Positions 9,001-64,000 of a DNA stretch of 64,000 nucleotides are shown piece by piece (position 1 is the first letter of the stretch; every line of letters starts with the position of its first letter). The stretch is from Hexactinellida sp. DTS-2022 (taxonomy: Eukaryota > Porifera > Hexactinellida). The notes under the pieces are model-generated. The model was given only the letters and a program-made list of their open reading frames with translations. It had not been told where the DNA came from and searched no databases. Position numbers and translations under genes: made by a program. The stretch is from assembly GCA_028753945.1 (NCBI GenBank), contig JAPNXP010000001.1, forward strand, positions 1 to 64,000. Reading direction: 5' to 3'.

Positions 9001-12000
9001 CTCGCATAGTTAAATGACTAATGGGGTTAACTGGTGTCAAGAATAGCCTTGTCTAAATCTGGACTATATTTTTTAGTCATTAAATCGTCTTGTAACTGGT
9101 CCATTTACTTAAATTCAAAATCTATTTTTTTAATATAATATAATGCGAGTTTTCGGGGTAAACCAGTGCTATTTGAATTGTGTTGGAAGGGTTGCCTTGT
9201 GAAAACTATCGGTTTTTAATGTCAGTTATATTGTGTCCCGTGAAAAGGAACTTGTTTCGGGTCGTCATGCATTTTTTAGAGTAACCAAATCGTCTTATGA
9301 AGGGTTCATTGGATGTAGTATAAATCATCACTATTACTAACTTTCTCGTATGTATCGGGCTTAAAACCAGTGCAATTAAAGTGTGAATGTATGGCTCCTA
9401 GTAAACCTCTCGCATAGTTAAATGACTAATGGGGTTAACTGGTGTCAAGAATAGCCTTGTCTAAATCTGGACTATATTTTTTAGTCATTAAATCGTCTTG
9501 TAACTGGTCCATTTACTTAAATTCAAAATCTATTTTTTAAATATAATATAATGCGAGTTTTCGGGGTAAACCAGTGCTATTTGAATTGTGTTGGAAGGGT
9601 TGCCTTGTGAAAACTATCGGTTTTTAATGTCAGTTATATTGTGTCCCGTGAAAAGGAACTTGTTTCGGGTCGTCATGCATTTTTTAGAGTAACCAAATCG
9701 TCTTATGAAGGGTTCATTGGATGTAGTATAAATCATCACTATTACTAACTTTCTCGTATGTATCGGGCTTAAAACCAGTGCAATTAAAGTGTGAATGTAT
9801 GGCTCCTAGTAAACCTCTCGCATAGTTAAATGACTAATGGGGTTAACTGGTGTCAAGAATAGCCTTGTCTAAATCTGGACTATATTTTTTAGTCATTAAA
9901 TCGTCTTGTAACTGGTCCATTTACTTAAATTCAAAATCTATTTTTTTAATATAATATAATGCGAGTTTTCGGGGTAAACCAGTGCTATTTGAATTGTGTT
10001 GGAAGGGTTGCCTTGTGAAAACTATCGGTTTTTAATGTCAGTTATATTGTGTCCCGTGAAAAGGAACTTGTTTCGGGTCGTCATGCATTTTTTAGAGTAA
10101 CCAAATCGTCTTATGAAGGGTTCATTGGATGTAGTATAAATCATCACTATTACTAACTTTCTCGTATGTATCGGGCTTAAAACCAGTGCAATTAAAGTGT
10201 GAATGTATGGCTCCTAGTAAACCTCTCGCATAGTTAAATGACTAATGGGGTTAACTGGTGTCAAGAATAGCCTTGTCTAAATCTGGACTATATTTTTTAG
10301 TCATTAAATCGTCTTGTAACTGGTCCATTTACTTAAATTCAAAATCTATTTTTTTAATATAATATAATGCGAGTTTTCGGGGTAAACCAGTGCTATTTGA
10401 ATTGTGTTGGAAGGGTTGCCTTGTGAAAACTATCGGTTTTTAATGTCAGTTATATTGTGTCCCGTGAAAAGGAACTTGTTTCGGGTCGTCATGCATTTTT
10501 TAGAGTAACCAAATCGTCTTATGAAGGGTTCATTGGATGTAGTATAAATCATCACTATTACTAACTTTCTCGTATGTATCGGGCTTAAAACCAGTGCAAT
10601 TAAAGTGTGAATGTATGGCTCCTAGTAAACCTCTCGCATAGTTAAATGACTAATGGGGTTAACTGGTGTCAAGAATAGCCTTGTCTAAATCTGGACTATA
10701 TTTTTTAGTCATTAAATCGTCTTGTAACTGGTCCATTTACTTAAATTCAAAATCTATTTTTTTAATGTAATATAATGCGAGTTTTCGGGGTAAACCAGTG
10801 CTATTTGAATTGTGTTGGAAGGGTTGCCTTGTGAAAACTATCGGTTTTTAATGTCAGTTATATTGTGTCCCGTGAAAAGGAACTTGTTTCGGGTCGTCAT
10901 GCATTTTTTAGAGTAACCAAATCGTCTTATGAAGGGTTCATTGGATGTAGTATAAATCATCACTATTACTAACTTTCTCGTATGTATCGGGCTTAAAACC
11001 AGTGCAATTAAAGTGTGAATGTATGGCTCCTAGTAAACCTCTCGCATAGTTAAATGACTAATGGGGTTAACTGGTGTCAAGAATAGCCTTGTCTAAATCT
11101 GGACTATATTTTTTAGTCATTAAATCGTCTTGTAACTGGTCCATTTACTTAAATTCAAAATCTATTTTTTTAATATAATATAATGCGAGTTTTCGGGGTA
11201 AACCAGTGCTATTTGAATTGTGTTGGAAGGGTTGCCTTGTGAAAACTATCGGTTTTTAATGTCAGTTATATTGTGTCCCGTGAAAAGGAACTTGTTTCGG
11301 GTCGTCATGCATTTTTTAGAGTAACCAAATCGTCTTATGAAGGGTTCATTGGATGTAGTATAAATCATCACTATTACTAACTTTCTCGTATGTATCGGGC
11401 TTAAAACCAGTGCAATTAAAGTGTGAATGTATGGCTCCTAGTAAACCTCTCGCATAGTTAAATGACTAATGGGGTTAACTGGTGTCAAGAATAGCCTTGT
11501 CTAAATCTGGACTATATTTTTTAGTCATTAAATCGTCTTGTAACTGGTCCATTTACTTAAATTCAAAATCTATTTTTTTAATGTAATATAATGCGAGTTT
11601 TCGGGGTAAACCAGTGCTATTTGAATTGTGTTGGAAGGGTTGCCTTGTGAAAACTATCGGTTTTTAATGTCAGTTATATTGTGTCCCGTGAAAAGGAACT
11701 TGTTTCGGGTCGTCATGCATTTTTTAGAGTAACCAAATCGTCTTATGAAGGGTTCATTGGATGTAGTATAAATCATCACTATTACTAACTTTCTCGTATG
11801 TATCGGGCTTAAAACCAGTGCAATTAAAGTGTGAATGTATGGCTCCTAGTAAACCTCTCGCATAGTTAAATGACTAATGGGGTTAACTGGTGTCAAGAAT
11901 AGCCTTGTCTAAATCTGGACTATATTTTTTAGTCATTAAATCGTCTTGTAACTGGTCCATTTACTTAAATTCAAAATCTATTTTTTTAATGTAATATAAT

Positions 12001-14703
12001 GCGAGTTTTCGGGGTAAACCAGTGCTATTTGAATTGTGTTGGAAGGGTTGCCTTGTGAAAACTATCGGTTTTTAATGTCAGTTATATTGTGTCCCGTGAA
12101 AAGGAACTTGTTTCGGGTCGTCATGCATTTTTTAGAGTAACCAAATCGTCTTATGAAGGGTTCATTGGATGTAGTATAAATCATCACTATTACTAACTTT
12201 CTCGTATGTATCGGGCTTAAAACCAGTGCAATTAAAGTGTGAATGTATGGCTCCTAGTAAACCTCTCGCATAGTTAAATGACTAATGGGGTTAACTGGTG
12301 TCAAGAATAGCCTTGTCTAAATCTGGACTATATTTTTTAGTCATTAAATCGTCTTGTAACTGGTCCATTTACTTAAATTCAAAATCTATTTTTTTAATAT
12401 AATATAATGCGAGTTTTCGGGGTAAACCAGTGCTATTTGAATTGTGTTGGAAGGGTTGCCTTGTGAAAACTATCGGTTTTTAATGTCAGTTATATTGTGT
12501 CCCGTGAAAAGGAACTTGTTTCGGGTCGTCATGCATTTTTTAGAGTAACCAAATCGTCTTATGAAGGGTTCATTGGATGTAGTATAAATCATCACTATTA
12601 CTAACTTTCTCGTATGTATCGGGCTTAAAACCAGTGCAATTAAAGTGTGAATGTATGGCTCCTAGTAAACCTCTCGCATAGTTAAATGACTAATGGGGTT
12701 AACTGGTGTCAAGAATAGCCTTGTCTAAATCTGGACTATATTTTTTAGTCATTAAATCGTCTTGTAACTGGTCCATTTACTTAAATTCAAAATCTATTTT
12801 TTTAATGTAATATAATGCGAGTTTTCGGGGTAAACCAGTGCTATTTGAATTGTGTTGGAAGGGTTGCCTTGTGAAAACTATCGGTTTTTAATGTCAGTTA
12901 TATTGTGTCCCGTGAAAAGGAACTTGTTTCGGGTCGTCATGCATTTTTTAGAGTAACCAAATCGTCTTATGAAGGGTTCATTGGATGTAGTATAAATCAT
13001 CACTATTACTAACTTTCTCGTATGTATCGGGCTTAAAACCAGTGCAATTAAAGTGTGAATGTATGGCTCCTAGTAAACCTCTCGCATAGTTAAATGACTA
13101 ATGGGGTTAACTGGTGTCAAGAATAGCCTTGTCTAAATCTGGACTATATTTTTTAGTCATTAAATCGTCTTGTAACTGGTCCATTTACTTAAATTCAAAA
13201 TCTATTTTTTTAATATAATATAATGCGAGTTTTCGGGGTAAACCAGTGCTATTTGAATTGTGTTGGAAGGGTTGCCTTGTGAAAACTATCGGTTTTTAAT
13301 GTCAGTTATATTGTGTCCCGTGAAAAGGAACTTGTTTCGGGTCGTCATGCATTTTTTAGAGTAACCAAATCGTCTTATGAAGGGTTCATTGGATGTAGTA
13401 TAAATCATCACTATTACTAACTTTCTCGTATGTATCGGGCTTAAAACCAGTGCAATTAAAGTGTGAATGTATGGCTCCTAGTAAACCTCTCGCATAGTTA
13501 AATGACTAATGGGGTTAACTGGTGTCAAGAATAGCCTTGTCTAAATCTGGACTATATTTTTTAGTCATTAAATCGTCTTGTAACTGGTCCATTTACTTAA
13601 ATTCAAAATCTATTTTTTTAATATAATATAATGCGAGTTTTCGGGGTAAACCAGTGCTATTTGAATTGTGTTGGAAGGGTTGCCTTGTGAAAACTATCGG
13701 TTTTTAATGTCAGTTATATTGTGTCCCGTGAAAAGGAACTTGTTTCGGGTCGTCATGCATTTTTTAGAGTAACCAAATCGTCTTATGAAGGGTTCATTGG
13801 ATGTAGTATAAATCATCACTATTACTAACTTTCTCGTATGTATCGGGCTTAAAACCAGTGCAATTAAAGTGTGAATGTATGGCTCCTAGTAAACCTCTCG
13901 CATAGTTAAATGACTAATGAGGTTAACTGGTGTCAAGAATAGCCTTGTCTAAATCTGGACTATATTTTTTAGTCATTAAATCGTCTTGTAACTGGTCCAT
14001 TTACTTAAATTCAAAATCTATTTTTTAAATATAATATAATGCGAGTTTTCGGGGTAAACCAGTGCTATTTGAATTGTGTTGGAAGGGTTGCCTTGTGAAA
14101 ACTATCGGTTTTTAATGTCAGTTATATTGTGTCCCGTGAAAAGGAACTTGTTTCGGGTCGTCATGCATTTTTTAGAGTAACCAAATCGTCTTATGAAGGG
14201 TTCATTGGATGTAGTATAAATCATCACTATTACTAACTTTCTCGTATGTATCGGGCTTAAAACCAGTGCAATTAAAGTGTGAATGTATGGCTCCTAGTAA
14301 ACCTCTCGCATAGTTAAATGACTAATGGGGTTAACTGGTGTCAAGAATAGCCTTGTCTAAATCTGGACTATATTTTTTAGTCATTAAATCGTCTTGTAAC
14401 TGGTCCATTTACTTAAATTCAAAATCTATTTTTTTAATATAATATAATGCGAGTTTTCGGGGTAAACCAGTGCTATTTGAATTGTGTTGGAAGGGTTGCC
14501 TTGTGAAAACTATCGGTTTTTAATGTCAGTTATATTGTGTCCCGTGAAAAGGAACTTGTTTCGGGTCGTCATGCATTTTTTAGAGTAACCAAATCGTCTT
14601 ATGAAGGGTTCATTGGATGTAGTATAAATCATCACTATTACTAACTTTCTCGTATGTATCGGGCTTAAAACCAGTGCAATTAAAGTGTGAATGTATGGCT
14701 CCT
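1..14703. repeat. 408-bp satellite array, 36 full copies
   Basis: Full units begin at 1, 409, 817, 1225 and so on every 408 bp to 14281, followed by 15 bp of another unit. The array is cut by the left window edge. Copies are almost identical. Differences concentrate in a T/A-rich tract at unit positions about 149-162, which has three forms (TTTTTTTAATGT, TTTTTTTAATAT, TTTTTTAAATAT), and at unit position 48, where copies 4 and 35 carry A instead of G. No long reading frame lies inside. Each unit is an old dimer: the half starting GAATGTATGGCTCC and the half starting near GTTGGAAGGGTTGCC align, sharing AAATCGTCTT and AACCAGTG blocks about 204 bp apart. Unit size, homogeneity and dimeric build fit centromeric or pericentromeric heterochromatin; that role is inferred. 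Confidence 0.97.
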
Positions 14704-15240
14704 GTTCAAACCTCTCGCCATTCAAAGTGAGTTCTGGGTAATCTGGTGTCAAGATTATCCTATTTTCAATGTGGACTATTTTTTTTAGTAACCAAAACGA
14801 CCTTTAAATGGCCCATTTCATGAATGCTAAAATATATATTTTTAAGGGATATATAATGCGAATTTCCTGTTTAATGCAATGCTATTTGAATAGAATTTGA
14901 ATGGTGCTAATGGAAAAATTGTGGCTATTCAATATCAGTTGTATGGTGTCTAGTGGAAATGACCTATTTGTGGTCATCATGTCTTTTTTTAGAGTAACAA
15001 AATTGCCTTGCAAATGGTCTAACGGATTAGCTATAAATGTGGACTTTTGGTAATTTTCTAGTATGGATCTGGGGTAAAACCAGTTGCTGTAAATTGAGTT
15101 TGAACGGTTGCCTTGTGGAACGGTTTGCTATTCTAAGTGACGATTGTTTGTTATTTATTGTTCAAATGACTCTTTTGAATGTCATTTATAACTACCCTTG
15201 TTGGGTAATGGTGTCTGTCAGTACATTTGATTGAAAGAAC
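14704..15240. repeat. Diverged edge of the satellite array
   Basis: Homology to the satellite continues but is strongly diverged. Recognisable blocks include TGGTGTCAAGA, TTTTTTAGTAACC, TATAATGCGA, GCTATTTGAAT, TTTTTAGAGTAAC and GGTAAAACCAG in satellite order, covering about two and a half half-units with many substitutions and small indels. Such decay at the border of a homogenised array is expected where unequal exchange is less frequent. Confidence 0.85.
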
Positions 15241-47878: not shown

Positions 47879-50800
47879 CTATTTTATATTCAGGTCACAC
47901 ACGATTGGGAGGTGATCCGAGGGGAACCAGGAGTTCGGAAGCGCGGTTTCGCGGCTGACTTCCCACCGGGCGGGCATCGGGGCCACCTGGTGCGTCGAGA
48001 GGGTGTGGGAGTCGCAGAAAATGTAGTCTAAGGTCGCCACGAAATGAGCGGCGAAGTGCGTGAAGTCAGCTGGGCCGCAAGCGTTGAGCAGCCGGAGAGA
48101 GTGGCTGAGAGAGAGCCCGGGGAATACGAACTGAGTGGGCATCTCTAGGGCCCAGGGCTGCCAGTCCAGATTGTTAGACTCAACGACTCCTAACAAAGTT
48201 AATTCAAATGTAGAGTCCCTAATAGTGCAATTAATCGCACCAACCTGTTTGTAGGAACTCAACGAGTCCCGAGTTGGGGCTGGCGTTGAAGTCTCCACAC
48301 AGAATAACAGAGACGCTTTTCTCTCCACTCTCCTTGTAGCGCTGCACCAGCCCCTCCAGGTGTCTGACCAGGAGCGCCATCTGGAAGAGACGAATGTAGG
48401 GGACCTTGGGCCGGGAGTGCAGATGCGTGTTGGCCACTAGGTACACCCGGCCGGGACTGGACCTGTCTCGGAGCACACAGATCTGGAAAATAGTGCCGAG
48501 AGATGAGAAGCGGAAGGCGACATCTTCCCCCCACAAAAGCAGTGAGTTGTACAGGACCAAGTTCTCCGGGATCTTCATGTACTCCCCTAGAGAACGGGCT
48601 TAGATATTCAAGCAATTTATTATCTCATTTCGCCACTAACATCTGGCCGCTAGCACTTAACGGGAACTGAATCAGTCAGATGGCAGGATTGCACACTAAT
48701 TAATGAGCGAGTGTACCATACAATACATGTATTAATTACACCACTAGTAGAGGATCATATTATAATAAGTAATTAAATATGCCTTCCTATTCAATATAAA
48801 TTGATTTTGGCTATTCCGATAAGTCAATATTATCTATTAACTAATCTCTATTAATATGTGTTGTTATTTACACATTAGATGGCAGAAATTGCGCAAGACG
48901 AATTTGAGTCACAACTCTCAAAACTCAAAACAGCGATAGACTCGCAAAAAGTAATCATAGAAATTAAATTCGCAGAAGTGATAGCCGCGTGCAGCGAGAA
49001 GAAGCGCGAGTTGCTGGAGCGACTGGACAGGCTCCTGGCGGAGTGCGAGCAGCAGCTGAGGGCGAGTCAGGGCGAGTACAGGCGACTGATGGAGAGCAGG
49101 AGGATACTGGCAGAGAGTCTGCGGGAAGACGCGAACGAAGAATCGCTCAGTCAGTGCTTCTCACGAATGGACACCGAAATAGCAAAGAAGAGACCGAAAG
49201 GGATTCCACAAATCGACCTGGCCTGGAACACGCAGACTGTATTAGCGTCCATAGAAAACATGTGCGTCATCAGAAGTGGTGAGTTAGCACAGGGCAGAGC
49301 AGATAGGATTATTAATTTATTAATTAATTGATGCTAGTCGCCTTTAGAAGTCAGACTCTCCAGAAAAACAGTGTCTCTAACGAACGTACACACCTACCTC
49401 CCGGACCCGGACACGGACACGGACACGGACACGGACCCCAGAGAGGTCACGAGGAGCTCCAGCTGGAGAGCCCCCGAGAGCATATCAACTGACCTAATGG
49501 TTGCTAGGAGCAGCATTCCAGGTGAGCATAGCCGTAGCTAGACAGAGCTGAGTAGCAGTGTAACGGGTTTCCTGCAGAGGAGAAGATCCCGTGCCTCCTG
49601 CGGTGGCAGAAGGAGCGGCCGACCCTCGAGAGAGAAGTGGTCTACGCGGACAGCACGGACGGCACCTTCCGTCTGGAGTGGAACGGAGACTGCTTCGAGA
49701 AGTCAAACATTGAGCTGTGCGTGGGGGAGCACAGAGGGCTGTTGGTGCTGAGCGACAGCAGCGCCTCTGCGACCACTGACAGCTTTCAGGTCGCAAGCGG
49801 TACGCGAGGTCTACAGGTGATCACACTGCACTTACAGGGACACACGGCTTCTGATGCTGCAGGTAGCTAATAACCGCGGTGTTGTTGTTGTTGTTGTTGA
49901 CAAGGTGTTGCTAGCTAAACCAAAGGAGAGCCCGGGAGAGGAGACACAGGTGGTGCGCCTGGCCTGGAAGAAGCAGCACCCCACGCTCAATACGAGCATA
50001 GAGTACATCGACAACAGAAACGGTAGCATGACTCTGCAGTGGAACGGAGAGCTCTTCCAGTCGCAGCCGCTGCCGATCGGAGTAGGGACGCACCATGGCA
50101 TGCTATCGCTAGGAGACAGCGACACGCTGCCACTCGTGGAGCAGTTCTCCGTGTGGACAGCCCCCGGCGTGCAGGAGGTGCTCCTGGACACGCCCCACAA
50201 GCAATAAGTACTTATGCTGTTTCCTTGTAAATCGAGTTGCAATTGAATAATGATATATTGTATGGCATTGATTAGTCTCACCTGAGTGCAGAGAATAGGT
50301 GTCGATGGCCTCGAACCGGTCTCGGCGGTACAGTATAACTTCTCCCTCGGGCATCTCTCCTGCCTTGGACGCGAAATCACCTGAAAACCCGGCACATTCC
50401 ATCGCGGGCATCAGGTAGTCAGTGTATCTGCGCTTGGTGACCTCCTGCAGACAGAGGATGTCCGGATGGAAGCCGATGAGCTCCCGGTTCGTGAGGGCCT
50501 GTCGGTAGTCCACGTCCAGCGTGAGGGCCGCGCAGTGGGGATAGATGGCGGTCTGGCAGTCCTTGCTCTTGGTCCACATGTCCGCCAGGATCTACAGACA
50601 CGCGTAGCACTGACTCCGAGGCGCTAAGAGAACGTACGTTGTAGGACAGCACCCGCAGGTGCTGCTTGTCCGTCGGCTGCCGAGTCGCCACGAACCTGTC
50701 CACCTGTCCCTCGCCCCCGGGGCAGGCCCGCGCCCCCGAGGCGGTGACGCCGTAGCAGCTGACGCCGACCCCCTCGCGACTGGCCGGGTCCAGAGGCTGG

Positions 50801-51483
50801 CAGTGGACCAGGAGTCTGTGTCCCAAGTCCTTCGCGCCTGGTATGTAAACAAACTCGTCGGAGACAGGGACCAGCTGGAAAGTGCTCATCAGCTGTTCGC
50901 TCAGCTGGGCGGTCCCGCCGCAGAGCGCCTGTGTGAGGGTGTCCGCACAGAAGGCGGGGTCCTCCACGCGACACCAGATCCAGCGGCAGTCGCGAAATTC
51001 GCAGCGACTCAGCTCGGCGCGCGGGACCGCCGGACAGCCCTCGAGGGTGTGTCTGGGGAGCGAGAGGCCCAGGACGCGCGGGAGGTTCACTCGGACCAGG
51101 AACTCGTCGGTCCCCACTCTCAGGACGCTCCGGTCCCTCCAGGCATCCGAGTTCGGGAGCTCCGGGTCCACGGGCTGGGACCGGAAGAGCAGCTGCACGT
51201 CCGGAGGGGGCGGGGCCTCGGAGGCGGGCTTCTTGCCCCCTTTCTTCGCATTCTTGTCGCTGGCGCTCAGCTGGATCCGCTGGAGACAGCGCTTCAGCTG
51301 CTCGGAGCCGCTGCGATCCATGGTCCTAACTCTCCCTCCGAGCGCGAGGTGGATGGTGACCCTGTCGGTCGCTGGGTACAGCTCCACCAGCGCCTGGCGC
51401 GGGAGGGGCGGGAGCTTTGCGGCCATTCGAGTCCCGAGGTTTCTGATGCGACGCAGGAGTTCTGATATAAAACCTGCTAGCAT
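47879..51483 (-). CDS. PDE12: 2',5'-phosphodiesterase 12-like enzyme (602 aa, 4 exons)
   Basis: Exons 51483-50638, 50591-50282, 48586-48245 and 48189-47879 join in frame. The C-terminal half is an endonuclease/exonuclease/phosphatase domain with all signature motifs: LRVLSYN (about 276-282), catalytic LQEV (E332), NTHLHS, GDFNASPNSG, ATLDYIF and SDHLPIV. The N-terminal half matches the PDE12 accessory region. The Arg-rich start MLAGFISELLRRIRNLGTR is a plausible mitochondrial targeting peptide. PDE12 degrades 2',5'-oligoadenylates and trims poly(A) from mitochondrial transcripts. Length is close to the vertebrate protein. Intron 2 (50281-48587) is unusually long for this block because it contains a complete plus-strand gene. 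Confidence 0.9.
48879..50207 (+). CDS. Coiled-coil protein with two unnamed beta modules, nested in PDE12
   Basis: Exons 48879-49278, 49348-49521, 49578-49862 and 49915-50207 join in phase 1 throughout and give 383 aa. Residues 1-133 form a TRIM-like coiled coil (ELLERLDRLLAECEQQL). Residues 134-191 are a linker with a DPDTDTDTDTDTDP run. Residues 192-286 and 287-383 are two copies of the module described for 56919-61180: W-x-K-x3-PTL, Y-x-D or YID, L-x-W-N-G-[DE], VGEHRGLLVLSD or VGTHHGMLSLGD, then F-x-V. The last acceptor is CTAG at 49911-49914; the nearer AAG at 49904 would give an early stop. The gene lies wholly inside PDE12 intron 2 on the opposite strand and ends 75 bp from a PDE12 exon. 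Function unknown; an adaptor role is inferred. Confidence 0.75.
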
Positions 51484-51795
51484 CAACGCACTTATGTGTT
51501 ATTAGCAACCAATTAGCACGCACACCAATATCCCAATGCTAACTCTAATGTTATTAGCGCATCGGCAATGCAGGTTGTATTAATAATAATAATAAAATGA
51601 ATTGCTAAGTATAGTAACGAGATAGTTATTATCAGCATGCAATTGCAGTGTATTGTTTGTGATGAGTGAGTGGCTGCTACAAACATTAAAAGAATAGCAA
51701 AGCTGGCTTAGTTCGAATCAGGCGGTCTCATGATAAGAATGAATATAAGGCAGCAATCAAAGGTGTCAAGCGCAGGTAAGCGCGCGGAATCGCGG

Positions 51796-54700
51796 CTAGA
51801 GCTCCGCGGACTCTGGGGCGCCGGGAGGGTCGGAGGGGGGCCGGCTGGGGGCGGGCCGCCTCAGACCGACCCTCGCCATCCACTGGACGAAGTGCGTCCG
51901 ATTCTGTCGGAGCACCTCCAGCCTGAGGTCCGTTCGGCGGGCGGGCGCGGCCGGCAGGAAGAAGGAGCGCAGCGTGCTGGGAGGGGGCGCCGAGGGGGCA
52001 GGGGACACAGGGGACTCTGAGTCGAACAGAAAGGGCCCGATGTTATGGGGTCCTAGGTCCAAGTCGGTTATGCTGTTGTTGTTGTTGTTGTTGTTATTGT
52101 TGCGACTGTCGTATTCTAAGGGCAGTTCCCGCGCGGACACGGGGGCGGTCCCACTGTCCTGCTGCTGGAGGAGGGGCTCCTCCGACCGGGGCTCCTTCCC
52201 TCCTACGGACAGAATAACGCAGGGGTTGCAGCAACATATTAATACTAACCTGCCAGACGGAGAGCGTAGTCGGCGAGGGAGTCCTTGTAGTTGGGCACGT
52301 TGGAGGGCGGGTCGATGGGCGGGTCGGCCGGCAGCGCGTAGCCGGCGGGGGGCGGGAGCACGTCCGTCTCGTAGGGGGGCTGTCTCCGGAGGGGGCGCGA
52401 CAGGGGGGAGGGGGGGCGACCGTAGAAGAGAGACAGGTCCTCGGGAGAGGTGGGGGCTCCCGGGAAGGGGGGCAGTCTGTGCAGAAAGTCCTGCGAGTTC
52501 ATGTAGTTTCTGTAGTCCATTGGCGGGGCCTTCCTCTTGGAGCTGTGCATGCCTATGTCAGTAGAGTAGGTATAATGTCATAAGCAGACAGGCTAAAATG
52601 AATGTACCCTGGGCGAGGGATTGCTGCTGCTTCCAAGCCATCACGTCCGCTAGGTACGGGTCGTAGGGCGGGTGGGCGTACCCGTGCGGGCCGTAGGGGG
52701 AGGGGGGGTAGAAGGGGTACGGCACGGGGGCGTAGGGGCTTCTGTGGGGGTACATGTAGGGGGCGGCGGGGGGCGACTTGTAGGGGGGCCTCGGGGGGTG
52801 GGAGGACTTGAGTTGAGGAGTGCAGGCTTGGTCTACAAGGGAACAAGTAACGGCATGACAGAACACAAACAGATATCTCACTCTCGGTGGCTAACGGGTC
52901 TACTTCCTCTGTGGTGGAGTGAGGCTGCTCCTCCGATCCCACCGTCGCCTCCGCGCCAGCAGCTGGGGAGACGCGCCTGTCAGATTCCGCGAGCGAGCAA
53001 GGTTCGTCCTGAGTAGGCACATCCGGTCCCATGGCGTCACCAGTTGTTCCTCTAAAATAATTAAACTCATCGTAAGCATAATGAAAATTCGCGAATTTGT
53101 TATAACTGGAAGGGAATCCTTATATAGAGCTGAGCTTTGTAGAGTTCAGATTTTTTCCCATACTAAAAGCCCAGGCTTACTTTCTAAAGGTCAATTTCAA
53201 ACTCTGGAAAAAAACTGACCTTTCTCAGTGCGTGAATACACATAGTGAAAAACTGAACTCTACAAAGCTCAGCTCTATATAAGTAATTTCTAACTGGAAT
53301 ACTTTTCAGAGAGTTCCGGCTGTATTTCTGTTTCAATGTTCTCAGTGTTCTGTTGTTGTTGTTGTTGTTGTGCTTCCGGTTGCCCCTCAGAGAGAGGCGC
53401 TCCCTGCCCATCTCTCTCTAAACAAGCGGCTAACACAATGGCAGAACAACTAAGCAATAGCGTACCAGCTGATCTGTGTTTCCCGGTGTGTCTGTGTCTG
53501 CGGTGGTGTCTGCCGGGCGGCGCGAAGAAGGGCGGGCCCGCGTAGTACGGCTCCAGCATGTAGTCCATGTACGGGGCCGCGTAGTACGGGTCTATGACAC
53601 AAGCATAGCTAAGAGACAGACTGGTAGTCAGGAGGGATGTACTTACGGGGGTACGGGTGTCCGTAGTGCGGAGAGGCGGGGTAGGGGGTCTGTCGGGGCC
53701 TGCTGGGGGGCGGGGCCGTCCCCGCGGCAGAGGAGCAGCTGCTCGTCCGAGAGTCCACAGAGCCCTTGCTCCCGCTGTCCTCTCTCGGCCTGGCCGGGTC
53801 CGGGGGGGCAGGGGGGACAGACTCAGGACTGGACAGACTCGACAGTTCAGCTGACTTCTGCTCTGCCGTGGTAGAGGAGACCTTCTCGCTCTTCTGCTTT
53901 CCCTCCGAACCCTTGCACAGCAGACCTAGGGCCACACAGCACACATTAACGCGTATAGCAGTGTAAGGGAGACATACCTTGGGAGCGGATTACTGTCTGG
54001 AGTCTGGCCTCCTCCTCGCGCCGCTCCTTGGTGGACCCGGCGGTGGCGCCCTCGGGTGCGCGGCCCTTGTGGGACGGGTCCCCCCAGTAGAGGGGGTAGG
54101 GGGGGAAGGGGGCGTGCGCGGAGGGCAGGAAGGGCGGGAAGTATGGGTATGGGGAGTACTCGTGGGGGTACATCGCACCTGAGTCCTTGTCGGCCGGATA
54201 GGGGGGGTAGGAGGGGTAGAAGGGGGGTGGGTACCGGGCGAACCTCATCTCGTCATTTCTCGGCCGCTTCGTGCTGCTGGGCTTCTGGACCATGGACTCT
54301 GTGAGCTCCGTCCTCCGCTTTCTGCGTCTCTTCACACCTGAGAATTCGCGATAACACAGATATCATCTCAGATATTACGAATAATAACCTGGAGACTTGA
54401 AGGGCGTGTGGCCTCCCTCAGACTCGGAGCTGGACCCGATGTCGGGGATGGGGGACCGGGCTCTGCTGGGTCCTAAGGCGGTACAAAGTTAAACAGAGAC
54501 AGATAGGTACCTCGATGTTGTGTACCTGGGTGCGAGAAGTGTTTGACGAACAGCTTGTTGAAGTGCTCCCGGACGGTGTGCGCCATCTCCGTGTACTCGC
54601 TGTCCGCGCCGTTGTAGCGCCGGCAGTTCTTGAAGATTCTCCGGAAATCCTTCACGAATTGCTCCTAGCAAACTCGGTAGATTAACTAACGACAGAAGTC

Positions 54701-56710
54701 CGAAGAAGTACCTTGCTTGAGTACTCCTCGTTCTTCAGCTTCCTCTCGACGGAAACTACGTCCATGGGTCGCTTGATGACGTCATGGTACCCCGGCGCGA
54801 TCGCCTCTGTCACAGGGTCCACGAATGGCCAGCAGTCCTCGTGTTTCTTCAAGTCATCTATAACCTAACTTACAATTTGCTTAAAGAATACAGTATTGGT
54901 GAGACCATGGATTAACCTTAAGTATGGCTATTCGCAGGTCCTCCCCTGTGACTTCCTCTTCCTGGTCCAGCGCCAGAGCTGAGTTGGGCAGGCTGGATTT
55001 CTTTCTGGGGCCCTGTATGTTGCCTATAAGAGAGAGAGCTATAACCTACATAGCACAGTGGCTACGGAGAGTTTGCCTGAGAACGCCTCTTCCCACTCCA
55101 TGGTCCGCCTCCGTCTGTTCTCCTCGCGCTCGCGCTTGCGCTCCTCCTCCCGCTCGCTGTCGCTGTCGCTCCCGGACCCCGCCCCCTCGGCCCGGGGGGA
55201 CCCGCTCTCGAGAGGGGCGCTCTGCTCGGCCGGGTAGCTAGCCTTCAGTTTGTTGTTCAACCTCACTGACGCCCTCTTAGAACCGACTCTCTCTAGCCAA
55301 GAATAATTAACACTATAAACCATGGATAAGTGAGTGCTACCTGAGAGCGCGAGGAACCTCTCGGTCCTGCTCCTCTCGGTGTGTATCTCCGTTAGCGACT
55401 GCATCAGCTCCTCCCGCACGCAGCGGACCAGCTCCTGCTCGCAGGCGTGCCCGGACCCCTCCCAGGACCCCAGGAGCCCCTCCCAATCCTTCATATCCGC
55501 ACACACGACCGACCATCCTACACAAGAGCTGAGCTACACGCGGCTGACAGGAATAGCAGCACTGACCTGTCCTAAGGGAGAACTGGTTGTCTCCCGCGGC
55601 CGGGAGCGGGTCCGGCCCGGCCCCTTCTCCGGAGACAGCTGCCGGTTCTCTCGCGGGACTGCTGGCCTCGGCGCAGCTAGCAGTTTCTAGACACAACAGC
55701 TAACTACAGAGCGGGCTAGTAGCCTAGCGCCTGTACCGTGTGTGTCCGGTGTGTCCGGTGTGTCCGGTGTGTCCGGAATGGGCTGCCTGCTCCTGGCGGA
55801 CCTCGTGACTCTCCTGGTCTCCTGCCGGCCGCTGTCCTCCTCGCAGCTCTCGCCTCTCTCCAAGTCGGACCCTTCAACTGACACGCGTCACACTCGCTAC
55901 AAAGATAGTTGCAACTCACTCTTTAGCAGGGCCTTCCTCTGCGCCCCGCCCCTGGGCTTGCCGCCGGGGGGCGGGGCGGTCTCCTTGTGGGGCCCCCTCT
56001 CCGCGGGCCGGGACCTGAGACTGCAGGAGCTCTTGTAGCTACAGACACGTCATAACCGGATGCGAATAGGAGAAGCGAGCTCACCGCTTGTTGTGCTGCT
56101 GTGCCTCCTTGCTCTCGCGGTAGAGTCTCATTCCGTAGAAGTACCACAGCTTGTGTCCCTCCCCATCAGTGCCCAGCTCCGCCACGCGGATGCGGGCCGG
56201 CTCCAGGCTCCGCAGACACTCAGTGACGTCATCCAGCTCCAAGCGCAGGTGGCAGAGTCTGTGCAGAATCTCAACCTTGCTGCGAGTGTCCAGCTGTGCG
56301 TAGCTGGCCCCCTCCATCGGACTGTACTTCTCGTTGAGGAACTCGCTTCTCCACACGAAGTGCAGTCGCAGCAGCAGCTCCCAGTTGTCCGGGCCTAGGG
56401 ACAGTGTCAGAAGAGCTGACCAGTTTACGACGGACCTACCGATCTCCTTCTTCTCCAGGATCCCTCTCAGGAAGGCGATGTGGATCCCGACCAGGAGGGG
56501 GTGTGTGTCCGGGGGGCCGGGGCCGGGGTCTGGGAGCAGTGCGAGCTCCAGCTCTTCGATGTCGAAAGTCGGCAGCTCGAGGGCCTCCGAGAAGGTGTGG
56601 CAGAAGTGCGCCACGCAGGGCACTTCCCACCAGGCCCGGATCTCGGAGAGGCAGGTGCCGTCTCCGGACCGGCCCTTGGGGGGGCGGCTCTCTCCAGGGG
56701 ACTCCGTCAT
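51796..56710 (-). CDS. CECR2: CECR2-like bromodomain chromatin remodelling subunit (1273 aa, 19 exons)
   Basis: Nineteen exons join in frame: 56710-56440, 56394-56085, 56038-55920, 55877-55737, 55686-55567, 55517-55341, 55292-55077, 55023-54917, 54864-54712, 54664-54526, 54472-54389, 54337-53978, 53925-53647, 53591-53466, 53417-53303, 53051-52882, 52832-52608, 52552-52250, 52202-51796. The N-terminus (IRAWWEVPCVAHFCHTFSEAL, FDIEELELAL, LHFVWRSEFLNEKYSP) matches CECR2. A bromodomain lies at about 490-585 (WPFVDPV...APGYHDVIKRPMDV...KNCRRYNGADSEYTEMA), including the acetyl-lysine-binding Asn in RYNG. CECR2 pairs with an ISWI ATPase in the CERF remodeller. The rest is low-complexity: acidic/Arg runs, a DTPDTPDTP repeat, then Pro/Tyr-rich YPPYP, YSPYPYFPP and poly-Q and poly-N tracts. 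Intron 7 is GC-AG. Confidence 0.88.
53119..53284. mobile_element. Palindromic MITE in a CECR2 intron
   Basis: TATATAGAGCTGAGCTTTGT at about 53120 and its complement up to about 53283 (ACAAAGCTCAGCTCTATATA) form inverted arms of about 38 bp, continuing through AGAGTTCAG. A TA dinucleotide borders each end. It sits in the intron between CECR2 exons 15 and 16 and makes that intron longer than its neighbours. Confidence 0.65.
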
Positions 56711-56801
56711 ACTAACTAGCTCTACTTCAAGCTTAGGTACAAGTATATACTATTTGCTCGAATGGTTAACAATTAAATTATTCAACCATTTAGAAGCCTG
56801 C

Positions 56802-56809
56802 TTTTATAC
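56802..56809 (-). promoter_or_regulatory. TATA box upstream of CECR2
   Basis: On the minus strand TATAAAAG occurs about 92 bp before the CECR2 ATG at 56710, inside the 208-bp gap after the adaptor gene at 56919. It suggests CECR2 has its own promoter in spite of the tight packing. Position only; no other core element recognised. Confidence 0.45.
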
Positions 56810-56918
56810 TAAATCTGATCGCAGCTCGAGTTAGTGAGGCATCGCTTAACAGTTTTATACAAATATTCACTTGGGAAGCTAAAAAGGAGAAATATAAACA
56901 GAACACAAAGCTTGTCAC

Positions 56919-58519
56919 TCAGCACCTATTGGGTCTGGGGTCTGCGCCCCTGGAGAGGGGGGCGGGGGATCGGGGGGGAATGGGAGGGGCAGCAGAAAAG
57001 CCTCTGATTATCCCTTTGAGTTTTGTAATTTGCTCGTTTGCCTCCGCCAGCGCTCTCATTGCGTGATTTCGCTCTTCCACAAGAGCAATCTTCTCGCCGT
57101 GCAGATAGTCCAAAAGCTTTCTCGAATAAGATTCAGATTCCAGCTTCGCTTTGGAAAGATTTTCTTTCGATTTCTCCAGCTCCTTAAACTCCATATAGTA
57201 CTCACTGCGTTGGTTGGCAGTTCCCATATTAACGTAGTCTTTGTCCCGAACTGGAGTCTCTTTTTGTGGCAAAGTTTTAGCAGTATCGATTTGGTTCCAA
57301 ATATGTTGCATCAAATCTTCATTAAGGCCTGTAGATGAATAACACACTTTTACAGACCACTGTTATAAAAATTCTAAACAATTACGTATTGGTATGTAAT
57401 ACGAATGTTTACTGTGCATCATGATTAAAATAGTTACAGCTATGGAGAAAGTGAGCATAAACTGTACCTGTTGCGATTTGAGGTTGGTACTCAGTCTTCT
57501 TCTGTTCTGACTCAAGCACGAGAGCTCTTAGCTTCTCCCCATTCCTGTGTCCGGCTAGCTGGTCGATAGCTGCATTCTTTTCGCTCTTCTCCCTCTCGAG
57601 CCGCCCCCTCAGCTCCGCGACTTCTCTCTTGCACTCGCTGAGCTGTTGCTCCGAGGCTGCCTGCTTCTTGTCTCTCTCCAGTATCGAACTGAGAGCCCGA
57701 ATCTCTGCTTCAAACTTCTCCTTGCTCTTCTGGTGTTTGTCTTCTTCCACACTCCTAAGTTCTTTGAATATTCGCAGCTGTTCTTCTTCCTTCTTTCTCA
57801 ATTCCCTGATTCGTTGCAGCTCTTCCTCTTCCCTCTTGGCCCCCTTATTATCTTTATTTTTACTTCCTCTATTTCCTAATACACTGCAGTTAATACACTG
57901 GCATATAACCTCCTGTTAACTCACCTCTTGCCAAACTGGGTTTCTCCGGTTTCACCATTGAAATGGTGATGCACTGGATGCCAGTGGCTAGCGGCTGCAC
58001 GTGGAAGGCCAGAATGTCTGCGCTGAGGTCGCAGTCGCTGAGCGCGAGACACCCGCTGTGCTCGCCGCTCGTAAGATCGGCGCTGCCTTCGAACTGGGAA
58101 CTAACCGCGTCCCAGAGCAATCTGTGGTCGCCGTCCAAACTATCGAAGTAGGTCGCTTGGGTGTCCAGAGTATCCTTCTGCTTCTTCCAGATCAGTGTCA
58201 CTCGCTGTTTGCCCTTGGCTAAGATAGAGAGATACTAACCTAGCTAACTAGCTACAGACTATCGTGACGTAATGATACCTGGCGCAGGCCTGTCCAGTCT
58301 CTGCAGCGAGCTGGGGTGCTTCCCTTCTGCGTCTGCGGGTCTGTTGGAAACGAGAGGGCCATTCTTAGAAAGGGGAATTAGCGCTTGTTGCCTGGCGAGT
58401 TCTGAAATTAAAGCATCTCCGCTGCCCCGGGCCAGGAGGGCTGCGTTCTCCCTGTCGCTAGCGGCCCCCTTGGGAGGGGCGCAGAGGGGCTTGTGTGGCT
58501 TGTGGGACCCATCGGCCAT
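56919..58519 (-). CDS. Coiled-coil adaptor-like protein, beta module, YVNM motif (450 aa)
   Basis: Exons 58519-58279, 58218-57925, 57875-57468 and 57328-56919, all phase 1. Residues 1-80 are disordered. Residues 81-178, exactly exon 2 (294 nt), are the module: LIWKKQKDTLDTQ, YFDSLDGDHRLLW, SGEHSGCLALSD, AFHVQPL, IQCITI. A long charged coiled coil follows (about 185-300). Exon 4 has DKDYVNMG with Y346, a site of the form YxN and YxxM that would suit Grb2 or PI3-kinase SH2 domains, then another coiled coil with SRKLLDYLHGEK. The C-terminus is proline-rich (PPIPPRSPAPL), a possible SH3 ligand. It resembles the next gene upstream in module, DYLHG motif and tail. No enzyme domain. A cytosolic scaffold or adaptor is inferred; the family is not recognised. 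Confidence 0.7.
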
Positions 58520-58657
58520 TAGTATAGATTAACTGTATAATCTACTGCGGCAGTGGAATAAGAATTCACAAACAGTAAAGCTGCCTACTGTATAAATAGA
58601 TGCATCAATTGGACAACATATACAACAGCAGAACTGAACATACACATCTAAATGTCC

Positions 58658-59988
58658 TCATTTCTCGGATTCCTCGCCTGCCCCTCCGGCCCCCTGGGCC
58701 GGGGCCTTGGGGACAGGCTTGGACCGCGTGGGCAGGGGAGGGGGCAAGCTGCCTGTCTCTGCGGACAGCTCCTGGACTCGGGCTGCTAGCTTCGCGTTCT
58801 CCGCCAGAGACTCCTCGAGGCCTCCCCTCAGCTTCAGCAGCTGCGCTTCCAGCAACTTCTTCTGTCCGTGCAGATAGTCCGAGTAGTCGTTAGCCGCCTG
58901 TTTGTCGGCCCTCGCGCGCTCCGCCTCGCGCTCCATTTCCGCCAGCCTGCGCTCCCACGCGCCCAGCTGCAGCCGCAGCTCCTCCAGCTCAACCGGAAAC
59001 TCGGTTCGCGGCTCCGTGGCCCGCAGTCGCGAGTTCTCCCTTGCCAGCTGCTCCGTCCGCTGGGCGAGCTCTCCGTTCTCGCGCCGGCACTCCTCGAGAG
59101 ACGCTTTGTGCCTGGAGCGCTCCTCCGCCAGCTCGCGGGTCGCGCTGTCCAGATCGGCCGTCAGCCTGCCGAGCTCTCTCTCCAGAGCTCTGGCCCTATC
59201 GCCGGCTGGCCTCTCCGTCTCTCTCGTCGCCACTGCTGGCGCCACTACACACCCAGTAACGACAGAACCTCAAAGCACCGAGCAACTCACCCGCTGGCTG
59301 CACTCGACTGGCTACCCGGCTGTGTCCGGTGGAAATAACGATCTTCTGCGGGGCGGGCCCGCCCTGCTCCACGAAGAAGGACTTTATCGGGAGGATGGTG
59401 TCCGTCCTGTCCAGCATCAGACAGCCGGAGTGCTCACCCAGCGAGAGCGCCGCCTCGCACTGGTACCACTCGTCCTGCGGACTCCACTTCAGCAGCAGCC
59501 CGCCCTCCGTCTCGTCTATGTAGCTCACCTCCAGGTCCAGGGTCGGCCGCTCCTTCACCCAGTGCAGCACCACTCTCCGCTTGCCTGCAACAACAGCTGA
59601 CTAGCAGACCACTGGCGCGCGGCTTACCTGCGGGGGCCTGGGGGAGGGCCGGGGGGCCCGGGTGCGGCCGGGTGGCGCCAGGCATCCTCTGGAGGTGCGG
59701 CATCTGGGCTGGCGGGTGGGACAGCTTGGGAAGAGGCTCCGAATTCTCCGGGCGGGGGGCGTAGCCAGGGCCGCTAGAGACGGCCGTGGAAAACTGTGGC
59801 TGCTGAGCGTTGTTGCCCGGACACTCCTGTTGGTGCCTCTCCCTCTGAGCCAGGGTCCCGAAGGCGCCCTTGCAGAGGTCGCAGGTCCACTGGTAGGCGT
59901 AGGGGGGCGGGAGCTGGCTCCACTGGGGCTGCTTGTGCGGGTCCAGCGGCGCGTCCTGCTGCAAGGACATTCTGCTAAGCGGTAACAT
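58658..59988 (-). CDS. Zinc-finger, beta-module, coiled-coil adaptor-like protein (413 aa)
   Basis: Exons 59988-59628, 59584-59291 and 59244-58658, phase 1 at both joins. Exon 1 has one Cys2-His-Cys finger, C36-x2-C39-x12-H52-x3-C56 (TCDLCKGAFGTLAQRERHQQ), close to ubiquitin-binding UBZ-type spacing, followed by a Pro-rich linker. Exon 2 is again 294 nt and encodes the module (LHWVKERPTLDLEVSYID, LLLKWSP, LGEHSGCLMLDR). Exon 3 is a long coiled coil containing NDYSDYLHGQKK at about 335-345 and ends with PPPLPTRSKPVPK. The gap to the downstream gene is 138 bp and to the upstream gene 83 bp. The start MLPLSRMSLQQ has two candidate Met codons. An adaptor reading ubiquitin is one possibility, inferred from layout only. 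Confidence 0.7.
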
Positions 59989-60071
59989 TATAGTTGCTTA
60001 ATATCAGGGACAAGTAAGCGAGGTAATAATATTTACACCATGCAGCTAAAAATATGTTCTCATCTCTGGTG

Positions 60072-61180
60072 TCACTTGTTGGTGTCTCTGGAAGGGGAGT
60101 GGCTGGAGGGGCGCGGGCCTGGAGAAGGGGGCAGGAGCGGGGGCTTGCGCGGCGAGGCGGTGAGTTGTGCGGGCTTATGATTGTTCTCAAAGTTTCCTAA
60201 TTTCCGTAATTCAGCAACTTCTGACTCCAACTTTTTATTTTTTATTTTAAAATCGTCTATAATTTTGCTGTTTTTCTCGATGTCCTCCTTCAGAGCCGAG
60301 TTGTCCCCCTCCAGCTGACGGCAGCGGTCCTGCGATTGCCGCAGCTCGTGCCTCAGCCGCATGTTCTCGATCTGCGGACCCACGTTCGCGTATATCTCCC
60401 CGTCGTCATATGTCCTCGCCTGCTCGGGCTCAGCTCCTAGCTTATCGATCTGTCCGAACACAACCCCGGGCGTCAGAGGCTGCAACGGCTTGCTGCCTTC
60501 TTCGTAATTAAGAGACGTTGGCCTAGCTAAACATCAGCAGGTTACATCCACACACAACTTAACCTAGCGAGGGTCGACTCACGTTTGATAGCCGGCTTTG
60601 GTCTAGAGGGATTGCTCGCTCCGCTGTCTTGGCAATAGATCTCTACGCTTGGAATGGAATCCGGAGTCGCGCTGACTTCAAACGGCTTCACGTCCGTGGC
60701 TGTGTTAGTGCTGCGAATGAGCAGAGTGCCCGCGTGCTGCCCGGGGGCGAGCTCGGCCTCCGCGCGGAAGCAGGAACCCGGGGAGTGCCACAGGAGACTG
60801 GTGCGCCCCCCCGCCGCGCTCACGTACGTCACCTGCTCGCTCTGAGACAGCTGCAGGCGGACCGAGAGCAGGACCCGCTGCTTCCCAACTGGCGCCGGGA
60901 CGGGGGCCCTCTGCGTCGCGTGGGTGGGTATCTGCGGACAGCTGGCGTGTCGGAGGTTGAGGAGCGTCCCGGGGAGAAGGGCGGGTCGGGTCGGCTGTCG
61001 GAGGTTGTAGTTGCTTACAGGCCCGCATGACGTCATGTGTAAATCCTTATTCGCCTCTTCAGAGAATTTAGCTCCGCACATAAGACACTCCCAGTGTATC
61101 CGAGGAGCGGGTGCTCTCACGTTCCCAGGCTGGGGGTCAAGGGGCGGTCGCCGAATTATTGGTTGGTTATTGGCATACAT
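60072..61180 (-). CDS. Zinc-finger, beta-module, coiled-coil adaptor-like protein, YANV motif (350 aa)
   Basis: Exons 61180-60583 and 60526-60072 (phase 1). The Cys2-His-Cys finger is C32-x2-C35-x12-H48-x3-C52 (ECLMCGAKFSEEANKDLHMT), same spacing as in the gene at 58658. A diverged module follows at about 98-190 on the same exon: QVTYVSAAGGRTSLLW, AELAPGQHAGTLLI, VKPFEVS, PSVEIYCQ. Here the intron that precedes the module in the other genes is absent. Exon 2 has GEIYANVGPQIENMR with Y245, a Grb2-type YxN site, then a coiled coil (about 250-310) and a Pro-rich end (KPPLLPPSPGPRPSS). The DYLHG motif is missing. It is the most diverged of the three tandem relatives. Confidence 0.68.
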
Positions 61181-61823: not shown

Positions 61824-64000
61824 TTAGATGTCTGACTTTATTGGATCATGATGGGAAATGTAAACCTCATTAACTGGTAGGAATATAGCATGTCGGTACT
61901 TGGCATGGAAAAATCTGTGATTATTATACTCACCGTTGCTGTCCCCCAGTGGATCCAAGAACTCAATTCCTGCAATGGTCTTATCATGTTTGTGTTTCCC
62001 TCGTATTATAACTCTAATAGTTCCAACGATATAATTAATACTTCCTTTGGGTCTGCACACTGCAAGCTCATCCACTAAGTTCTCAGGTTTCTCTACTTGG
62101 TTCAATGTGTAGAATTTTGAGTTTTTTCCACCATAATAAATATCTGTTGACGTATATTTATGTTGAATAGGACCAACAGCTTTTGGAGGTTCAGATCGTT
62201 TTTCCTTGACACTGATATCTAATGAGAAACATAGAATAATTTCATTGGATTGTCAACTGACTGATATAACTTTGTGTCCCAAAGTTAAGAGGAGGGACAC
62301 CCTCTCAAACCTCAATGAATTATTGAGTTATAAACTGTTGTATTAAATTTATACGTACTACAATGATTCAAAGTAGGAATTCATGGAAGTAGAAGTCTCA
62401 TCCAGTATTACTAAGACCAGCTAACCTTGAGTAGGTGGTTTGGAAGCATAACAGTCAGCTGATTGATGCTTACTGTCTGCTTTGCACTGAGCAGAAAGTT
62501 TGTAAAACTCCAACTTAAATATCTCGAGCTCTTTCATTGAATTATCTAGATTCTCTTTAAGGATGTTATTCTCTGTAATCTTTTCTTCAATGTATGTTCT
62601 TAGAGTTTTATTATCCTTGTTTTTATCAGAGAGCTGTTGTTCAAGCTGTCTCACCCGATCAACATCTAAAACACTCCATAATAACTAGAATGCCTATAGT
62701 TAGCTAACATTACACTCTACCTGTCGTATCACTATGCTGTCTCCTCATAGCTTGGCCTGTTGGTCTCTTTAACTCGTGTCCCAGACTCTGACTGACGGAC
62801 AGTTCGCACACATCCCTCTCGCTCTCCGTCGCTTCAAACTGACTCGCCACGTCTAGCTTGCTAGCTAGCAATTCCTGCGCTCCTCTTAGCTCAGCTTTCA
62901 CAGAAGCAACCGCCTTCCTAAGATCGTCACATTCACTCGTTTTGAGAGATAAATTCATTTCCAATTCTTCGATTTTTTCTAAAGATTTCTTGCTACCACT
63001 GATTGCTGCCCCAGAGTAAGTCATTCTACTTTGATTTCCTGAATTACTGTCTAGATTCCTTCCTATTTTGGACACTTGCACCCTCAGATGTATCAATTCC
63101 TTTTCTAACTGGGAGCTATTCCGTCTCATAGTCTCATATTCTGAATCAGCTGGTCGCTTAGACAGTTGTTCAATCAACTGCTGTTTCGTACTCAGTTCCA
63201 CCTGCAGCCCAGCAATGCGTGCGTTCAATGAACTAACGCGTTCTTCTGCACCGACAGATTGCGAGTCAGAACTCCTCTGTTTCCTCTCAAAATCATTTCT
63301 CGTCGAATAACTGTTGTCAGCTAAAGACTCCATCCGGGATTTCAACACGACTATCTCACTTTCCAGCTGCTGCTGCTGGTTAACTAGAGCGGCATTCTCC
63401 TCCCGCAAGGCCTGCTCTCCTCTCCGGAGGTTGACAACCGAAGCTCTCTGAAGGTCCAGCTCCTTTCTGAGCTCGGCAACCAGAGCCTCAGACTCGTCGA
63501 ACTTGGATTTATCTTCGCTGTACTTGTCGAACACTTGGTGTGATTTCTCACTGAATCGTCCTACCAATAAGGAAGACTCAAATCTCCATTCATATCTAAC
63601 CAATAATAAATACACAGAACTTGCATACCCATCTCCTCCTCCAAGCTCTTTAGCTCTTCTACTTTGTAAGATACTGTTTTCTCCTTATCTGCTAGTCTAG
63701 CTTTCAACTCGGATATTGTTTGTTTGTGTTTCTCCTCTCTCTTCAGGAGCTCTGCAGTCTCGGTTGCATGTCGCTGCTTCAGGAGCTCAATCTCAGTCCT
63801 GCACTTTTCCTATCAGTTGAATGACTCATGAAACCAGTGCTTAGACATGCGCCGCAAGAACTAACCAATTCCTTCAATGTCTGCTTGCTTATTCCAGGCT
63901 GAGAATACGAGTCAGCAACAACTTGTCCTTTCGCTAAAAGGAAGTATAATTAATATCTCTGGGCTGGTCTCCGTGAGAGCAAACTAACCGCGGTCAGGTA
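61824..64000 (-). CDS. Coiled-coil protein with C-terminal CAP-Gly domain, 5' end outside window
   Basis: Visible exons, in order of transcription: up to 63989 (partial), 63933-63866, 63809-63629, 63560-62721, about 62665-62426 and 62218-61824. They join in frame. Nearly 500 residues of coiled coil (for example LVAELRKELDLQ, LEEEMGRFSEKSHQ, LEKIEELEMNLSLKTSE) lead to a C-terminal CAP-Gly domain: GTIRVI, IAGIEFLDPLGDSNGEYN, RFFHAKYRHAIFLPVNEVY. CAP-Gly domains bind EEY/F tails of microtubules and plus-end proteins. The usual GKNDG signature is replaced by GDSNG. A C-terminal CAP-Gly after long coils recalls CEP350-type or KIF13B-type layouts rather than CLIP170. The head is not in the window, so the family stays open. 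Confidence 0.75.

What the first reader, a model, noticed from the sequence alone, without database searches (positions are those of the whole stretch)
48879..61180. Undescribed ~95-residue module shared by four neighbouring coiled-coil genes
Five copies (48879-50207 twice; 56919-58519; 58658-59988; 60072-61180) share [WL]-x-K-x3-PTL, Y-x-D, L-x-W, G-E-H-x-G-x-L-x-L and F-x-V. Periodic hydrophobics suggest a beta sandwich. I do not recognise it as SKICH, C2, MATH, FN3 or Ig. The family clusters in 12 kb and combines the module with coiled coils and variously C2HC fingers, YxN sites and proline tails, so it may be a lineage-specific adaptor system.
Basis: partly seen in the sequence, partly recalled or inferred. 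Interest (0 to 1): 0.85.

Follow-up and report, generated by a model that had tools for sequence, protein, structure and literature searches.

The report
Starch-binding fold reused in adaptor genes
A cluster of animal (probably sponge) genes shares an unnamed protein domain that is predicted to fold like the starch- and glycogen-binding domains of AMP kinase and amylases but lacks their usual sugar-gripping residues, and is joined to zinc fingers, coiled coils and in some genes a microtubule-type CAP-Gly domain, so it was probably reused as a protein-binding part of adaptor proteins.

Summary
Five copies of a ~90-residue module lie in four genes at 48879-61180; leave-one-out profiles recover all five (E 7e-13 to 8.5e-24). 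The first motif is W-x-K-x2-[PD]-T-L (not x3) and fails in copy 4. No Pfam model reaches its cut-off. The family is larger than reported: 14 places found in the own genome, nine in 31 kb, one a remnant. A fifth neighbouring gene appears to run off the window (finger, module, coiled coil, CAP-Gly); unnamed relatives in other genomes keep all or part of that layout.

Best reading: a lineage-specific adaptor family using a CBM20/48-like domain without the usual sugar site for protein contacts. Fold well supported; function inferred.

The parts
48879..50207 (+). gene 1: N-terminal helical, coiled-coil-like part and two tandem modules; exons 48879-49278, 49348-49521, 49578-49862, 49915-50207
   Evidence: GT-AG joins, 383-aa product without internal stop; no transcripts
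49589..49843 (+). module copy 1a
   Evidence: HMM; leave-one-out E 2.1e-21
49941..50201 (+). module copy 1b
   Evidence: HMM; leave-one-out E 4.6e-17
56919..58519 (-). gene 2: module, coiled coil, DYVN motif, proline tail; exons 58519-58279, 58218-57925, 57875-57468 (or 57438, tied), 57328-56919
57947..58213 (-). module copy 2
   Evidence: leave-one-out E 8.5e-24
57228..57236 (-). YVN (possible phosphotyrosine YxN site) of gene 2
   Evidence: translation; function inferred
56919..56993 (-). proline-rich tail with PPIPPR of gene 2
   Evidence: translation; SH3-ligand role inferred
58658..59988 (-). gene 3: C2HC finger, proline-rich linker, module, coiled coil, proline tail; exons 59988-59628, 59596 (or 59584, tied)-59291, 59235-58658 (other acceptors for the last exon score nearly as well)
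59821..59889 (-). C2HC finger of gene 3 (W-x-C-x2-C-x12-H-x3-C)
59319..59585 (-). module copy 3, the copy folded first
   Evidence: leave-one-out E 9.7e-24; AF2 pLDDT 91.5
58658..58750 (-). proline-rich tail with PPPLPTR of gene 3
   Evidence: translation; SH3-ligand role inferred
60072..61180 (-). gene 4: C2HC finger, module, YAN motif, coiled coil, proline tail; exons 61180-60583, 60526-60072
61025..61093 (-). C2HC finger of gene 4
60623..60886 (-). module copy 4, most diverged of the five, folded second
   Evidence: leave-one-out E 7e-13; AF2 pLDDT 93.1
60384..60392 (-). YAN (possible phosphotyrosine YxN site) of gene 4
   Evidence: translation; function inferred
60072..60149 (-). proline-rich tail of gene 4
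   Evidence: translation; SH3-ligand role inferred
61827..64000 (-). gene 5, part inside the window: coiled-coil frames and C-terminal CAP-Gly; a C2HC finger frame and a module (C1:64017-64298) lie just outside the window; that all belong to one gene is inferred, no splice model was made
   Evidence: three-frame translation; module
61863..62024 (-). CAP-Gly domain of gene 5, GDSNG where the usual motif is GKNDG (motif recalled)
   Evidence: Pfam PF01302, 35.4 bits and 34.1 bits, cut-off 26.5
62710..63615 (-). coiled-coil-like exon region of gene 5
   Evidence: ORF; same gene inferred

Best explanation
The module is a diverged alpha-glucan-binding-type (CBM20/CBM48, E-set) beta sandwich that has lost the usual sugar-contact residues and probably serves as a protein-recognition domain in a lineage-specific family of cytoplasmic coiled-coil adaptors. 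The fuller, probably older layout is C2HC finger, proline-rich linker, module, long coiled coil, CAP-Gly. The coiled coil would oligomerise the protein, the module and the finger (in one gene just over the Pfam cut-off for the autophagy-receptor finger) would hold cargo or signalling partners, and the C-terminal end would either dock on a CAP-Gly target or, in the short members in the window, offer YxN and proline (SH2/SH3) sites instead. Shown here: the family, the layouts, and a confident predicted fold matching CBM20/48. Supported but not proven: homology to CBM20/48 and loss of the canonical sugar site. Inferred: cytoplasmic place, protein binding, all partners, adaptor function.
Confidence: 0.55

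Rival explanations
1. The module still binds glycogen or another alpha-glucan through a different surface or aromatic set, and the proteins tether glycogen granules to scaffolds or microtubules, like animal STBD1 or the plant coiled-coil plus CBM48 PTST proteins.
For: Fold closest to starch/glycogen-binding modules; coiled coil plus CBM48 proteins exist in plants (PTST1: passages of PMC6322578) and glucan binding there depends on the CBM48 (passage of PMC4339375). No Pfam CBM_20 match was found in the genome, searched exon by exon, so an STBD1-like role could be vacant. F/Y residues occur near the third contact region in 15 of 24 rows.
Against: None of 24 rows keeps the AMPK/PTST-type Trp-Trp-Lys contacts; the conserved residues look mostly like core and a family-specific WxKxxPTL loop (inference).
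Confidence: 0.15
2. The resemblance to CBM20/48 is only convergence on a common E-set/Ig-like sandwich; the module is an independent beta-sandwich family.
For: Weak sequence support; DUF3823, VHL, filamin and pilus domains also appear among weaker matches; no Foldseek E at 1e-3 or less.
Against: Starch-binding modules fill 49 of 50 rows for copy 3 and rows 1-48 for copy 4, the best standing about 2 Z units above the first other chain; both copies agree; a G-[EQT]-H turn and F/Y-x5-L line up with AMPK beta in the global alignment.
Confidence: 0.25
3. The genes are decaying lineage-specific duplicates with little function.
For: One remnant copy at C1:144736-144864; strongly diverged copies; cluster near a contig end that begins with a satellite.
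Against: Open, splice-consistent models for four of four genes; conserved core; close relatives of the gene 3 and gene 5 modules and of the C3 member in other genomes (66-84% identity for gene 3 and C3 queries).
Confidence: 0.05

Closest known systems
CBM48 of AMPK beta (Pfam AMPK1_CBM PF16561)
   Different: Not among Pfam matches at E<=10; longer first loop with WxKxxPTL; Trp100, Lys126, Trp133 equivalents missing
CBM20 (B. cereus beta-amylase SBD, STBD1, GPCPD1, laforin)
   Different: Not among Pfam matches at E<=10; sugar-site Trp not seen; different partners in the protein
PTST proteins of plants (coiled coil + CBM48)
   Same: General layout of a non-catalytic CBM-fold domain plus coiled coils (passages of PMC6322578, PMC4339375)
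   Different: Plastid proteins with a functional glucan site; finger and CAP-Gly not described in the passages seen
Autophagy receptors TAX1BP1/NDP52 (SKICH, coiled coil, UBZ finger; layout recalled)
   Same: Beta sandwich + coiled coil + C2HC/UBZ-like finger; finger of gene 5 just passes PF18112
   Different: Sandwich gave no SKICH match in Pfam; order of parts reversed; no CAP-Gly there (recalled)
CLIP/CYLD-type CAP-Gly proteins (recalled)
   Same: CAP-Gly, in CLIPs with coiled coil
   Different: GxSxG in place of GKNDG (recalled motif); a CBM-like domain with CAP-Gly was in no paper found

Membership tests
CBM20/CBM48-like fold (structural superfamily) | E-set beta sandwich superposing over most of the domain | tested here: met
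AMPK1_CBM (PF16561) / CBM_20 (PF00686) sequence family | match to the curated profile | tested here: not met
   neither listed for any of 17 rows at E<=10 (one row had a typing error at its first residues); module places are not among the 3 own-genome AMPK1_CBM hits; 0 CBM_20 hits
functional CBM48 | Trp/Trp/Lys glucan contacts (Trp100, Trp133, Lys126; passages of PMC9788615) | tested here: not met
   0 of 24 rows at each inferred position and in a band around each; register inferred; F/Y present near the third in 15 of 24
functional CBM48 | binding of glycogen or starch | not testable with these tools
   needs protein
SKICH, C2, MATH, FN3, Ig | match to Pfam profile | tested here: not met
   none listed for the module rows (E<=10); one V-set match at E 0.027, 15.1 bits, under the cut-off of 26, for the gene 5 module frame
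SKICH, C2, MATH, FN3, Ig | fold | tested here: inconclusive
   only the 50 best rows of each structure search were seen; absence does not exclude
CAP-Gly protein (gene 5, C3 member) | Pfam CAP_GLY over cut-off | tested here: met
   35.4/34.1 bits and 40.4 bits, cut-off 26.5; C5 member 31.0 but 25.5
CAP-Gly protein | GKNDG peptide-binding motif (recalled) | tested here: not met
   GDSNG in gene 5, GNSDG in the C3 and C5 members
UBZ / autophagy-receptor finger PF18112 | Pfam cut-off 23.2 bits | tested here: inconclusive
   gene 5 finger 23.9 bits over 17 of 27 positions; genes 3, 4 and C3 member not listed; one of seven fingers listed at E<=1

The most novel reading that the evidence does not exclude
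A lineage-specific cargo-receptor system in which a re-purposed starch-binding fold recognises a protein or modified-protein ligand with a new WxKxxPTL/GxHxG site, a UBZ-like finger reads ubiquitin and a variant CAP-Gly end links the oligomer to microtubules, with shorter paralogues that exchange the microtubule end for SH2/SH3 docking sites.
Probability: 0.12. Interest if true: 0.75.

Novelty: new variant of a known kind. Interest (0 to 1): 0.5.

Why it matters
It adds a domain family that is not in the Pfam copy searched to the starch-binding fold, and would be a case of a carbohydrate-binding sandwich turned into an adaptor part within an animal lineage (probably sponges), joined to CAP-Gly and finger domains in a combination I know from no other group. 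It gives a clean test of how a sugar-binding scaffold can lose its sugar and gain new partners. It is not a new fold.

Tried and rejected
Named domains by sequence: Pfam for the five window copies and for 17 rows gave only chance-level matches under every cut-off; PDB by profile gave nothing at E<=10 with A1 and two chance-level chains (E 0.73 and 1.1) with A4. Prokaryotic or viral origin: no relative of the copy-3 protein by tblastn in genome contigs or viral contigs (close relatives only); BFVD structures gave no match at 1e-3 or less for copy 4. SKICH, C2, MATH and FN3 do not appear in the rows shown by the structure searches, which excludes nothing. Papers: 0 papers with sponge + chromosome-level genome + CAP-Gly and 0 with CAP-Gly + carbohydrate-binding module; of the ten listed (1,290 papers hold two of sponge, CAP-Gly, demosponge) none holds CAP-Gly, so a paper with sponge and CAP-Gly alone could lie further down. 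One search (CBM48, CBM20, coiled-coil, AMPK) gave three plant papers. Tree of 24 modules: only orthologue groups are resolved, one of 21 inner branches is starred and long branches meet, so no history of duplication is claimed. Species: not named by any tool; 'probably a demosponge' is an inference from 18 contigs and 112 Mb (abstract starts give 18 chromosomes for Crambe crambe, Diacarnus erythraeanus and also Petrosia ficiformis, all with larger genomes).
Full report
What was checked. The window is C1:1-64000 of a 112.4-Mb, 18-contig genome, a eukaryote by its spliced genes. No tool names it; I take it for a demosponge, an inference. The four genes of the finding were modelled from reading frames and GT-AG sites and give products of 383, 450, 414 (or 410) and 350 residues with no internal stop. 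Some junctions in genes 2 and 3 have tied or nearly tied options. All splice sites are predicted, without transcripts.

The module is real. A five-copy HMM found the five window frames and seven further frames at E 4.4e-9 or better among the window and the six loci fetched first (one row carried a short typing error). With each of 12 copies left out in turn, together with its orthologues where there were any, the profile found that copy at E 2.6e-11 or better in 12 of 12 tests, and the best frame not counted as family had E 0.35 (4391 open frames of the window and 14 fetched loci; the frames of the split copy and of the remnant were counted as family and left out of that figure).

The family is larger. 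Translated searches of the own genome (11, 12 and 10 matches) and an HMM over the window and 14 fetched stretches give 14 places: nine in C1:49589-80925, two more on C1 (one split, probably by an intron, at 249530-249830, one internally deleted remnant at 144736-144864), and one each on C2, C3 and C5. These are lower bounds. The gene next to the finding (gene 5, C1 about 64536 to 61827, no splice model made) shows a C2HC finger, a module at 64017-64298 just outside the window, coiled coil and a CAP-Gly end at 61863-62024. The C3 member is one open frame of 1207 codons with finger, proline-rich part, module, coiled coil and CAP-Gly. The C5 frame also ends in a CAP-Gly-like stretch (31 bits, 25.5 bits, cut-off 26.5). 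Coiled coils are read by eye and from weak matches to many coiled-coil Pfam models; no predictor was run.

Relatives elsewhere. In 5.8 billion proteins the copy-3 query found two proteins among 15 candidates, the 13-row profile four among 240, and the C3 module six among 12, all from unnamed ENA records. Five of the six long ones carry Pfam CAP_GLY; P0007 and P0012 show finger, module, coiled coil and CAP-Gly together, P0009 lacks the CAP_GLY match, and P0008, P0010 and P0011 begin after the finger or within it. Prokaryotic and viral contig scans with the copy-3 protein were empty. These data cannot show absence from other animals, because few animal proteomes may be in the searched sets.

The sugar site. 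AMPK beta1 holds beta-cyclodextrin with Trp100, Trp133, Lys126 and Asn150 (passages of PMC9788615), and mutating the matching Trp pair abolishes starch binding in PTST (passage of PMC4339375). From residue 21 to 63 of copy 3 a register to AMPK 91-133 can be drawn without gaps, anchored by G-E-H and F/Y-x5-L and agreeing with the global HHalign alignment; the local one is shifted by three residues at the first Trp. At the three positions there is no Trp, no Lys and no Trp in 24 of 24 rows, and in bands around them (22-33, 54-58, 59-68) likewise none in 24 of 24. Against this, Phe or Tyr occurs at 26-32 in seven and at 59-68 in 15 of 24 rows, so another aromatic contact is possible. The genome's own three AMPK1_CBM domains keep the first Trp and the Lys in three of three and the second aromatic in three of three, as Trp in two. 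Asn150 was not tested.

How it may work. The parts are those of adaptors: coiled coils to oligomerise, a finger of W-x-C-x2-C-x12-H-x3/4-C type before the module in genes 3, 4, 5 and the C3 member, of which that of gene 5 passes the Pfam cut-off for the autophagy-receptor finger (23.9 against 23.2 bits, over 17 of 27 positions and ending before the His) while three others scanned with it do not, YxN and proline motifs in the short members, CAP-Gly in the long ones. The CAP-Gly motif reads GDSNG or GNSDG instead of GKNDG (recalled), so its ligand may differ from EEY/F tails. I therefore favour protein recognition by the module over glycogen binding, and rate the glycogen tether at 0.15.

Novelty. 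The module is not in the Pfam copy searched, and its domain combination turned up in none of the papers found, but the fold is known, so I file it as a new variant of a known kind. I hold the CBM20/48 kinship of the fold at about 0.75; the functional claim clearly lower.

Noticed in passing
window 1-14891: Satellite of 408-bp units, 36.5 copies at 99% match, at the start of contig C1.
   Followed up: no
window 48234-51486 (-): PDE12-like gene (PF21171 and Exo_endo_phos matches below their cut-offs); gene 1 seems to sit on the opposite strand between its exons (inferred).
   Followed up: partly
window 56084-56710 (-): DDT domain exon (30.6 bits, cut-off 22) of a chromatin-type gene lying between gene 1 and gene 2.
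   Followed up: partly
L049:4472-7909 (C5): The C5 member has a long array of about 13-residue repeats (IPQPLNEEIIQKE type) between module and CAP-Gly-like end.
   Followed up: no
L047:3619-4788 and 5199-6392 (C10): Two divergent genes with CAP-Gly ends but no module found; their N-terminal helical part resembles that of gene 1 by eye.
   Followed up: no
L045:1007-2764, 3986-4402 and L009:8807-8932 (C3): Further CAP-Gly frames next to the C3 member without a module found; truncated paralogues perhaps.
   Followed up: partly
P0010: Long relative with several CAP-Gly-like repeats in tandem in one frame, by eye.
   Followed up: no
G000 C4:773807-774016 and C6:297812-298033: Two further AMPK1_CBM domains besides AMPK beta, over the cut-off, with the usual Trp/Lys contacts; the proteins they belong to were not identified.
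   Followed up: no
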